DNA of 49,136 nucleotides from Candidatus Poribacteria bacterium (GTDB taxonomy: Bacteria; Poribacteria; WGA-4E; WGA-3G): positions 1 to 49,136 of the forward strand of contig JAPPFM010000046.1 in NCBI GenBank assembly GCA_028821605.1, in the 5' to 3' direction. Position numbers and translations under genes: made by a program. The notes under the pieces were generated by a model. That model was not told where the DNA came from. It did no database searches and was given only the letters and a program-made list of their open reading frames with translations. Below are positions 39,104-41,127 of this stretch, piece after piece (within the stretch, counting starts at the first letter, position 1; each line of letters opens with the position of its first letter).

Positions 39104-39168
39104 CGGTCGTGGAACGCGCGCCCCCCTTTACCCGCATTATCTACCAAAGTCATTTTGACATCACGCAA

Positions 39169-39201
39169 TGCCACAGTGGCAAGAATTGTGCCAATTTGGC
39201 G
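39169..39201. promoter_or_regulatory. Paired TGCCA-N3-TGGC palindromes, candidate activator sites
   Basis: TGCCACAGTGGCA (39169-39181, perfect) and TGCCAATTTGGCG (39189-39201, 12/13) share TGCCA-N3-TGGC and are centred 20 bp apart, two helical turns. They lie 160-290 bp upstream of the sigma-54-type boxes, the usual location of enhancer-binding activator sites. Confidence 0.5.
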
Positions 39202-39358: not shown

Positions 39359-39374
39359 TGGCACGGAATTTGCT
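39359..39374 (+). promoter_or_regulatory. Sigma-54-type promoter, copy 1
   Basis: TGGCAC-GGAAT-TTGCT: exact match to the -24/-12 consensus TGGCAC-N5-TTGCW with GG and GC 10 bp apart. Initiation would be near 39386. Confidence 0.65.
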
Positions 39375-39423
39375 TTATATGCAAACAGGAAGGCAAATAG
39401 CCTTAAAGTGTCTCAAAAAAGAT

Positions 39424-39439
39424 TGGCATAAAACTTGCT
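39424..39439 (+). promoter_or_regulatory. Sigma-54-type promoter, copy 2
   Basis: TGGCAT-AAAAC-TTGCT, one change from consensus, correct spacing. Initiation would be near 39451. Confidence 0.6.
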
Positions 39440-39446
39440 ACCTATT

Positions 39447-39462
39447 TGGCATGGAACTTGCA
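39447..39462 (+). promoter_or_regulatory. Sigma-54-type promoter, copy 3
   Basis: TGGCAT-GGAAC-TTGCA, one change from consensus, correct spacing, 23 bp after copy 2. Initiation near 39474, 29 nt before the first Hsp20 ATG. Confidence 0.65.
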
Positions 39463-39502: not shown

Positions 39503-39961
39503 ATGAATTACTTAACGACACGTAGACCGATGAGAAACCTGTTCAACCTTCACAATGAAATGGGACGGGTCTTTGGTGACCTCTTTGCTTCTGGTTCTCA
39601 TGAAGGCGGAACAGATACGGAAGAAACCTCTTGGATGCCCACAGTAGACATTTCTGAAATGGAAAACGGGTACGAAATTCGTGCCGAACTTCCTGGTGTC
39701 TCCGAAGACGATGTCAATATTTCCGTAACCGACAACGTCCTCACTGTCAAAGGTGAGAAACGGCAAGAACAGGAAACGGAAGGCAAAAATTACCACCGTG
39801 TTGAAAGACACTATGGCAGCTTCCAACGGAGTTTCACGCTACCGAGACACATTGAAACCGAGGCTATTAAAGCGGAATTCAAGGATGGTGTCTTGACACT
39901 CGGAATCCCGAAGGCGGAAGTAGCGAAACCGACTGAAATTCCGATCACCGCAAACTCGTAA
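39503..39961 (+). CDS. Hsp20/alpha-crystallin small heat-shock protein, copy 1 of 3
   Basis: 152 aa ATP-independent holdase that binds unfolding proteins in the cytoplasm. N-terminal arm MNYLTTRRPMRNLFNLHNEM, then the alpha-crystallin domain from WMPTVDISEMENGYEIRAEL to about residue 140, with LPGVSEDDVNISVTDNVLTV, FQRSFTLPRHIE, KAEFKDGVLTLGIPK, and a short C-terminal tail with the I-x-I-type anchor (EIPITAN). AAAAGGAG precedes the ATG. It is the promoter-proximal gene of three tandem paralogues, driven apparently by sigma-54-type promoters. Confidence 0.95.
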   Translation: MNYLTTRRPMRNLFNLHNEMGRVFGDLFASGSHEGGTDTEETSWMPTVDISEMENGYEIRAELPGVSEDDVNISVTDNVLTVKGEKRQEQETEGKNYHRVERHYGSFQRSFTLPRHIETEAIKAEFKDGVLTLGIPKAEVAKPTEIPITANS

Positions 39962-39972
39962 TGCAATGGGAA

Positions 39973-40010
39973 GGGTAATCTCGTCTGCTATTGAGTAGAC
40001 GAGACTACCT
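39973..40010 (+). terminator. Hairpin between Hsp20 copies 1 and 2
   Basis: CTCGTCTGCT (39980-39989) pairs with AGTAGACGAG (39994-40003), with further pairing outside (GGTA / TACC). No T-run follows, so it may tune expression or stabilise the upstream message rather than end it. Confidence 0.5.
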
Positions 40011-40087: not shown

Positions 40088-40534
40088 ATGAATTACTTAA
40101 CCACACGCAGACCGATGAGAAATTTGTTTGGACTCCACAACGAAATGGGGCGAGTCTTTGGTGACCTCTTGGGTTCAAGCGAAAATGAAACGGATGATAC
40201 AATTTGGATGCCCGCGGCAGATATTTGTGAAACAGAAAATGGGTTTGAAATTCGCGCTGAACTCCCGGGAGTCTCGGAAGACGACATCAACATTTCTGTA
40301 ACCGATAATCTCCTCACTATCAAAGGCGAAAAACGTCAAGAGGAAAACAGCGAGGGGAAAAACTACCACTGTGTCGAAAGACGATACGGCAGCTTCCAAC
40401 GGAGTTTTACACTACCGAGACACGTCGAGACCGACGGTATCAAAGCCGGGTTCACGGATGGTGTTCTGACACTCGGAATTCCGAAGGCGGAAGTAGCGAA
40501 ACCGACTGAAATCCCGATCACAGTAAACTCTTAA
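40088..40534 (+). CDS. Hsp20/alpha-crystallin small heat-shock protein, copy 2 of 3
   Basis: 148 aa, very close to copy 1 (N-terminus MNYLTTRRPMRNLFGLHNEM, domain ELPGVSEDDINISVTDNLLT, tail EIPITVNS). AAAAGGAGAAAG precedes the ATG. The variable loop after residue 30 is shorter (GSSENETDDTIW) and a cysteine replaces His in KNYHCVERRYG. No promoter of its own is evident in the 126-bp gap, which contains a hairpin, so it is probably read from the upstream promoters. Confidence 0.95.
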   Translation: MNYLTTRRPMRNLFGLHNEMGRVFGDLLGSSENETDDTIWMPAADICETENGFEIRAELPGVSEDDINISVTDNLLTIKGEKRQEENSEGKNYHCVERRYGSFQRSFTLPRHVETDGIKAGFTDGVLTLGIPKAEVAKPTEIPITVNS

Positions 40535-40544
40535 TACAACGAAA

Positions 40545-40586
40545 AGGGCATGCCTCGTCTGTTAAAAAACACACGGGGCTGCCCCT
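40545..40586 (+). terminator. Hairpin between Hsp20 copies 2 and 3
   Basis: GGGCA-t-GCCTCGT (40546-40558) pairs with ACGGGGC-TGCCC (40573-40584), one bulge and one wobble, around an A-rich loop. No T-run follows. Shares CTCGTCTG with the hairpin in the previous gap. Confidence 0.45.
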
Positions 40587-40631
40587 CAGAATACAAGGAA
40601 CACACAACTTTCATACCAAAGGAGAATGAAA

Positions 40632-41063
40632 ATGACTTACTTGACTTTACACAGACCGGCAAGAAACCTGTTCAGATTTTACAACCCATTATTTACGCGT
40701 CAAAACGCACGAACCGACGCGAGTAGATATAATTGGTACCCCTCGGTTGACGTTTCAGAAACAGATGACAACTTTGAAGTTCGCGCTGAACTCCCCGGAG
40801 TCGCAAAGGACGACCTTCATGTTTCTGTTAAAGATAACCTCTTGACCCTCAGCGGCGAAAAGCGACAGGAAAAGGTGGACGACACCCAAAACTATCGCCG
40901 AGTCGAGCGACGTTATGGGAACTTCCAGCGAAAATTCGCACTCCCACCGGAAGTGGAAACGGACGACATCAAAGCCGAATTCAGCGACGGGGTCTTGGTG
41001 CTTTCCATCCCGAAACCGGAAGCTGCGAAACCGACCGAAGTCCCTATCACAACTGTATCCTAA
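40632..41063 (+). CDS. Hsp20/alpha-crystallin small heat-shock protein, copy 3 of 3
   Basis: 143 aa from ATG 40632: AAGGAG lies 7 nt upstream, whereas the ATG at 40626 is only 1 nt from it. N-terminus MTYLTLHRPARNLFRFYNPL is clearly related to copies 1 and 2 but the rest has diverged more (WYPSVDVSETDDNFEVRAEL, GVAKDDLHVSVKDNLLTLSG, FQRKFALPPEVE, AEFSDGVLVLSIPK, EVPITTVS). This is probably the older duplication, and hetero-oligomers with the other copies are possible. The transcript ends at the terminator at 41084. Confidence 0.95.
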   Translation: MTYLTLHRPARNLFRFYNPLFTRQNARTDASRYNWYPSVDVSETDDNFEVRAELPGVAKDDLHVSVKDNLLTLSGEKRQEKVDDTQNYRRVERRYGNFQRKFALPPEVETDDIKAEFSDGVLVLSIPKPEAAKPTEVPITTVS

Positions 41064-41083: not shown

Positions 41084-41127
41084 TAAAAAAGGCTGGCGCG
41101 TGAATGAATGTGCCAGCCTTCTTTTTT
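41084..41127. terminator. Bidirectional terminator between Hsp20 copy 3 and aquaporin
   Basis: AAGGCTGGC (41089-41097) pairs perfectly with GCCAGCCTT (41112-41120). CTTTTTT follows rightward and TTTTTTATTT follows leftward, so it can stop both convergent transcripts. Confidence 0.88.

What the first reader, a model, noticed from the sequence alone, without database searches (positions are those of the whole stretch)
39359..39462. Three sigma-54-type promoters stacked before a small heat-shock gene cluster
TGGCAC-GGAAT-TTGCT, TGGCAT-AAAAC-TTGCT and TGGCAT-GGAAC-TTGCA within 104 bp, all on the correct strand with the correct 5-bp spacer; three chance matches are very unlikely. E. coli ibpB is reported to have a sigma-54 promoter, but a triple array driving tandem Hsp20 genes would be a distinct heat- or stress-control mode.
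Basis: partly seen in the sequence, partly recalled or inferred. Interest (0 to 1): 0.75.

Follow-up and report, generated by a model that had tools for sequence, protein, structure and literature searches.

The report
Sigma-54-driven heat-shock chaperone regulon
In a sponge-associated Poribacteria genome, the genes for small heat-shock proteins, DnaK, GroES-GroEL and ClpB share one promoter type (sigma-54) and one conserved upstream enhancer, which suggests that this lineage runs its protein-folding stress response through an activator-dependent switch instead of the usual HrcA or RpoH controls.

Summary
Three exact TGGCAY-N5-TTGCW sites lie at 39359, 39424 and 39447 (+), upstream of three tandem Hsp20 genes. 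The genome (Candidatus Poribacteria) has a three-domain RpoN and 14 strong sigma-54 activators. It holds 71 exact sites against 15 for a reversed control. Every one of 49 distinct Poribacteria Hsp20 upstream regions has 1-3 such sites, so the array is real and conserved; its copy number varies.

The larger finding was missed. A block of three 13-bp palindromes (TGYCA-N3-TGRCA), 20-22 bp apart, lies upstream of the promoters and looks like an enhancer for a sigma-54 activator. Of 71 exact sites scored in this genome, only those before hsp20, dnaK, groES-groEL and clpB have two or more such palindromes within 260 bp upstream. The pairs before dnaK and groESL keep fixed spacing across the genus. 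HrcA is absent from this genome and all 23 same-genus genomes searched; no true RpoH was found. Best reading: a sigma-54 chaperone regulon with one shared activator. Heat induction and the activator's identity are inferred. Sigma-54 control of chaperones has been predicted in Bacteroidota and Planctomycetota, so this is a new variant, not a new category.

The parts
39148..39160 (+). Enhancer palindrome 1, AGTCATTTTGACA
   Evidence: conserved in genus
39169..39181 (+). Enhancer palindrome 2, TGCCACAGTGGCA (exact TGYCA-N3-TGRCA)
   Evidence: conserved
39189..39201 (+). Enhancer palindrome 3, TGCCAATTTGGCG
   Evidence: conserved
39359..39374 (+). Promoter P1 (distal), sigma-54 -24/-12 element TGGCAC-GGAAT-TTGCT
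39424..39439 (+). Promoter P2 (middle), TGGCAT-AAAAC-TTGCT; clade-limited 23-bp repeat
39447..39462 (+). Promoter P3 (proximal), TGGCAT-GGAAC-TTGCA
39503..39961 (+). hsp20 gene 1 (152 aa), with AGGAG ribosome site just upstream
40088..40534 (+). hsp20 gene 2 (148 aa)
40626..41063 (+). hsp20 gene 3 (145 aa; ATG at 40632 also possible)
41089..41120 (+). Intrinsic terminator closing the operon (13-pair stem then T run)

Best explanation
The three sites are genuine sigma-54 promoters of a three-gene hsp20 operon that belongs to a dedicated sigma-54 chaperone regulon of Poribacteria: hsp20, dnaK, groES-groEL and clpB. SHOWN from sequence: exact and conserved -24/-12 elements, a shared palindromic enhancer (TGYCA-N3-TGRCA) in several copies, an rpoN gene and activator genes, absence of HrcA in the genus and of a true RpoH. 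INFERRED: on heat or protein-folding stress one NtrC-type activator binds the enhancer array, assembles as a ring and loops to sigma-54 polymerase waiting at the -24/-12 elements, turning the chaperone operons on together. At hsp20 the extra promoters would let more than one polymerase wait (P1 and P3 are 88 bp apart) and raise the burst; P2 and P3, 23 bp apart, can probably be occupied only one at a time. Two response regulators conserved across the class (L007, L008) are the likeliest activators, but that step is weak.
For: Exact sites and excess over control; conservation upstream of hsp20; three-domain RpoN and 14 activators; conserved enhancer triplet; the same enhancer plus promoter at dnaK, groESL and clpB; only these four loci among 71 scored sites have two or more enhancer palindromes; fixed enhancer-promoter spacing while the leader length varies; composite pattern in 33 of 40 relatives with zero reversed-control hits; HrcA missing in 24 of 24 genus genomes; no RpoH over cut-off.
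Against: No transcript, binding or induction data. The activator is not identified and none is encoded in the window. At hsp20 the enhancer lies 146-246 bp from the promoters and in two relatives (L064, L066) it nearly abuts P1, which may then be unusable from it. A few genus mates have the composite element before non-chaperone genes.
Confidence: 0.8

Rival explanations
1. The sigma-54 promoters and enhancer are real, but the signal is not heat: the activator answers another stress (nitric oxide, redox, nitrogen or envelope stress), and chaperones are among its outputs.
For: The enhancer resembles the GTCA-N3-TGAC sites of the nitric-oxide sensor NorR (consensus from memory), which also come in threes. 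Candidate activators are response regulators, so the signal could be extracellular.
Against: In this genome the loci with the enhancer are exactly the classical heat-shock chaperones and no nitric-oxide or nitrogen genes. In the genus no HrcA or RpoH is left to do heat control.
Confidence: 0.25
2. The palindromes are sites for a repressor or another regulator and not for the sigma-54 activator; the promoters are sigma-54 but the chaperones are mainly regulated otherwise.
For: Palindromes are typical of repressors too; no activator has been tied to them. CtsR and HspR were not searched for.
Against: Multiple copies upstream (not overlapping) the promoter and fixed 53-55 bp spacing to the -24 element at dnaK and groES despite leaders of variable length.
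Confidence: 0.12
3. Chance matches to the -24/-12 consensus.
For: Single matches do occur by chance: 15 in the reversed control.
Against: Three in 104 bp, in the right strand and place, and conserved in 49 of 49 distinct upstream regions.
Confidence: 0.01

Closest known systems
Predicted sigma-54 promoters of chaperone genes in Bacteroidota and Planctomycetota (PMC12316311, PLoS One 2025)
   Same: sigma-54 elements before groEL, groES, ibpA, grpE, dnaJ and dnaK.
   Different: Other phyla; Poribacteria not mentioned; no tandem promoters reported and no chaperone enhancer found in the passages read; link to HrcA loss not made in them.
E. coli ibpB sigma-54 promoter (PMC4316790, citing Kuczynska-Wisnik 2001)
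   Same: A sigma-54 promoter before a small heat-shock gene.
   Different: Secondary to sigma-32 control; a single promoter for one gene, no regulon.
E. coli norVW enhancer with NorR (PMC2941729)
   Same: Three enhancer sites essential for a sigma-54 activator; similar palindrome (from memory).
   Different: Controls nitric-oxide detoxification; no NorR identified here.
HrcA/CIRCE heat-shock control
   Same: Targets groESL and dnaK in many bacteria; present in other Poribacteria families with perfect CIRCE at hrcA loci.
   Different: Repressor system; absent from this genus.
Myxococcus HsfA-HsfB two-component system activating lonD (Ueki and Inouye 2002, cited in PMC9548883)
   Same: A two-component regulator switches on a heat-shock gene; HsfA as an NtrC-type activator is from memory.
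   Different: One protease gene, not the main chaperones; no shared enhancer known to me.

Membership tests
sigma-54 (RpoN) dependent promoter | TGGCAY-N5-TTGCW with GG and GC at -24/-12 spacing | tested here: met
   Three exact matches, conserved
sigma-54 (RpoN) dependent promoter | rpoN gene with activator-, core- and DNA-binding domains in the genome | tested here: met
sigma-54 (RpoN) dependent promoter | Upstream enhancer for an AAA+ activator, and activators in the genome | tested here: met
   Conserved palindrome triplet; 14 activators. Binding itself not tested
sigma-54 (RpoN) dependent promoter | Transcription from these sites that needs RpoN and an activator | not testable with these tools
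   Needs RNA or reporter data
HrcA/CIRCE regulon | hrcA gene in the genome | tested here: not met
   PF01628 absent in G000 and 23 genus mates; found in 13 of 40 relatives, in other families
HrcA/CIRCE regulon | CIRCE element at chaperone operons | tested here: not met
   No good CIRCE at genus dnaK or groES loci, perfect CIRCE at outgroup hrcA loci
RpoH (sigma-32) regulon | rpoH gene | tested here: not met
   TIGR02392 below cut-off in all genomes
NorR enhancer system | Three GTCA-N3-TGAC type sites upstream of a sigma-54 promoter | tested here: met
   Three sites with a similar core; NorR consensus from memory, source paper not held
NorR enhancer system | NorR protein (GAF-AAA-HTH) as the activator | tested here: inconclusive
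   L007 and L008 score below the NorR cut-off; six of 14 activators domain-scanned, five with a receiver domain and none with GAF; the other eight not scanned

The most novel reading that the evidence does not exclude
A whole bacterial class runs its core chaperone set (Hsp20, DnaK, GroESL, ClpB) through one dedicated sigma-54 activator and a shared enhancer code. In one genus this became the only recognisable heat-shock control after HrcA was lost, with stacked promoters at hsp20 holding several waiting polymerases.
Probability: 0.6. Interest if true: 0.75.

Novelty: new variant of a known kind. Interest (0 to 1): 0.62.

Why it matters
Bacterial heat-shock control is usually described as a sigma-32 regulon or as release from a repressor (HrcA, CtsR, HspR). 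A regulon in which the main chaperones wait under sigma-54 and are released by an ATP-driven activator would be a third logic: low leak, fast release, one switch. The finding gives a defined DNA code (enhancer plus -24/-12) and a short list of activators to test, and predicts what to look for in heat-stress metatranscriptomes of sponges, which host this uncultured group.

Tried and rejected
Chance matches: rejected by the reversed-pattern control and by conservation. HrcA/CIRCE and RpoH control: not found in the genus. A minus-strand near-match at 39178-39193 (TGGCACAATTCTTGCC) falls inside the enhancer block and is explained by its TGNCA half-sites. Activator by gene neighbourhood: none in the window; an activator about 2 kb from hsp20 in relative G032 (L253) has no ortholog in this genome, so it is not the common one. 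Activator by reciprocal best hit over five genomes: L007 and L008 remain, undecided, and several G025 and G038 activators could not be extracted, so the screen is incomplete. Helical phasing of promoter spacings: suggestive only (Rayleigh p about 0.06 on ten distinct values). Hsp20 homologues outside Poribacteria (L102-L112): no good site within 450 bp. A first motif script had an index error and found nothing; corrected. The outgroup dnaK loci looked negative in a 450-bp scan but were positive behind a longer leader. Rfam: no hit. The Tucker 2010 NorR paper was not held.

Full report
WHAT WAS CHECKED. The window lies on contig C46 of a 6.0-Mb, 60-contig draft genome (98% complete). Its Hsp20 gene is closest to those of many Candidatus Poribacteria genomes. 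The three reported motifs are present exactly as described, at 39359, 39424 and 39447, and are the only exact TGGCAY-N5-TTGCW matches in the window. Genome-wide the pattern occurs 71 times against 15 for the pattern read backwards. Three Hsp20 genes follow at 39503-39961, 40088-40534 and 40626-41063, closed by a strong terminator at 41089-41120. No sigma-70 promoter stands out above chance.

MACHINERY. RpoN is present with all three domains. There are 14 strong sigma-54 activator genes; the fifteenth, weak hit of that search is ClpB.

CONSERVATION OF THE PROMOTER ARRAY. The orthologous gene was collected from 40 relatives and from named Poribacteria records. Upstream regions gave 119 forward sites against 3 in the reversed sequence. 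Of 49 distinct upstream regions, all have at least one site, 35 have two or more and 16 have three; spacings are mostly 61-65 bp and 23 bp. Outgroup genera have a single site. The middle site aligns as a 23-bp insertion beside the proximal site, which looks like a tandem duplication. The array is real and conserved, but its number is a variable elaboration.

THE ENHANCER. Aligning the upstream regions showed a second conserved block: three 13-bp palindromes of the form TGYCA-N3-TGRCA, at 39148, 39169 and 39189 in the window. They are spaced 20-22 bp across the genus while their distance to the promoters varies. This is the layout expected for a sigma-54 activator; three enhancer sites are essential at the NorR-controlled norVW promoter (PMC2941729; PMC4601167).

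THE REGULON. Searching the genome for the palindrome led to dnaK and groES-groEL, each with an exact -24/-12 element downstream (identities confirmed). A sigma-54 site with near-matches to the same palindromes precedes clpB (identity). As a specificity test, the palindrome (up to one mismatch) was scored in the 260 bp upstream of 71 exact sigma-54 sites: 61 have none, 5 have one, and the only loci with two or more are hsp20, dnaK, groESL and clpB. The motif was defined on hsp20, so the other three are not circular. In the genus the dnaK enhancer sits 53-55 bp before the -24 element in 20 of 22 loci, although the leader length varies about threefold; the other two have short contigs. groES has an enhancer about 55 bp before the -24 element in 23 of 23. 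A composite pattern (promoter, 30-60 bp, palindrome) matched 33 of 40 relatives, with no reversed-control hit in any genome, and in this genome matched only dnaK and groESL. It also finds dnaK in an outgroup family, behind a leader that carries a small receiver-domain gene, and clpB in a genus mate (L344). Beyond the genus, hsp20, groES and clpB keep sigma-54 sites, most with palindromes, in several families; in family f3 the groES upstream regions lack a good site while hsp20 has one.

WHAT IT REPLACED. HrcA is missing in all 24 genomes of the genus and in family f3, but present in the other families searched, where perfect CIRCE elements lie at hrcA loci. No genome has an RpoH above the curated cut-off. 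In this genus the sigma-54 system is the only recognisable control of the main chaperones found here. CtsR and HspR were not searched for.

HOW IT PROBABLY WORKS. Shown: conserved elements, shared code, machinery, absence of HrcA. Inferred: stress activates one NtrC-type activator, which fills the enhancer array, forms a ring and opens promoters held by waiting sigma-54 polymerase. At hsp20, P1 and P3 (88 bp apart) could both hold a polymerase, whereas P2 and P3 (23 bp apart) probably compete; this rests on general knowledge of the polymerase footprint. Reciprocal best hits over five genomes leave two pan-class response regulators, L007 (with what looks like a sensor-kinase gene next to it) and L008 (orphan), as the best candidates. 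L301, the L008 match in G025, was found but not extracted, and several G025 and G038 activators were not extracted at all, so this identification is weak.

NOVELTY. sigma-54 promoters before chaperone genes have been predicted in Bacteroidota and Planctomycetota (PMC12316311), and E. coli ibpB has one (PMC4316790). A planctomycete heat-shock study noted that its rpoH, rpoE and rpoN genes were not themselves regulated and suggested a different cascade (PMC2754498). I found no paper on sigma-54 control of heat shock in Poribacteria, but only open-licence papers were searched. The new parts are the shared enhancer code, its confinement in this genome to the chaperone operons, the stacked promoters, and the coincidence with HrcA loss. 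I file it as a new variant of a known kind.

LIMITS. No transcript, binding or induction data; draft genomes; the inducing signal is inferred from the targets. Other chaperone genes (grpE, dnaJ, htpG, lon) were not examined one by one.

Noticed in passing
window 39973-40010 and 40546-40584: Strong RNA hairpins without a long T run in both gaps between the hsp20 genes (fold z-scores -4.0 and -4.6); possible processing or stability elements.
   Followed up: partly
L321-L325 (outgroup family f4): A 165-aa single-domain receiver protein sits between the sigma-54/enhancer promoter and dnaK, hinting at a phosphorelay link to chaperone control.
   Followed up: partly
L318, L327, L338, L342: In some relatives the same enhancer plus promoter precedes other genes: a repeat protein, a gene pair with a TIR-like protein, a CBM9-like protein and a membrane permease-like protein (gene names judged by eye).
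   Followed up: no
G000 contigs C8 and C44 (L015, L011): Two unusual activators with long C-terminal extensions, related to L008, close to other sigma-54 sites.
   Followed up: no
L253 (G032): A response-regulator activator about 2 kb from hsp20 in one outgroup genome, without an ortholog in the window's genome.
   Followed up: partly
G014 contig C347: A divergent DnaK next to the only strong RpoH-like match among the relatives; probably a contaminating contig.
   Followed up: no
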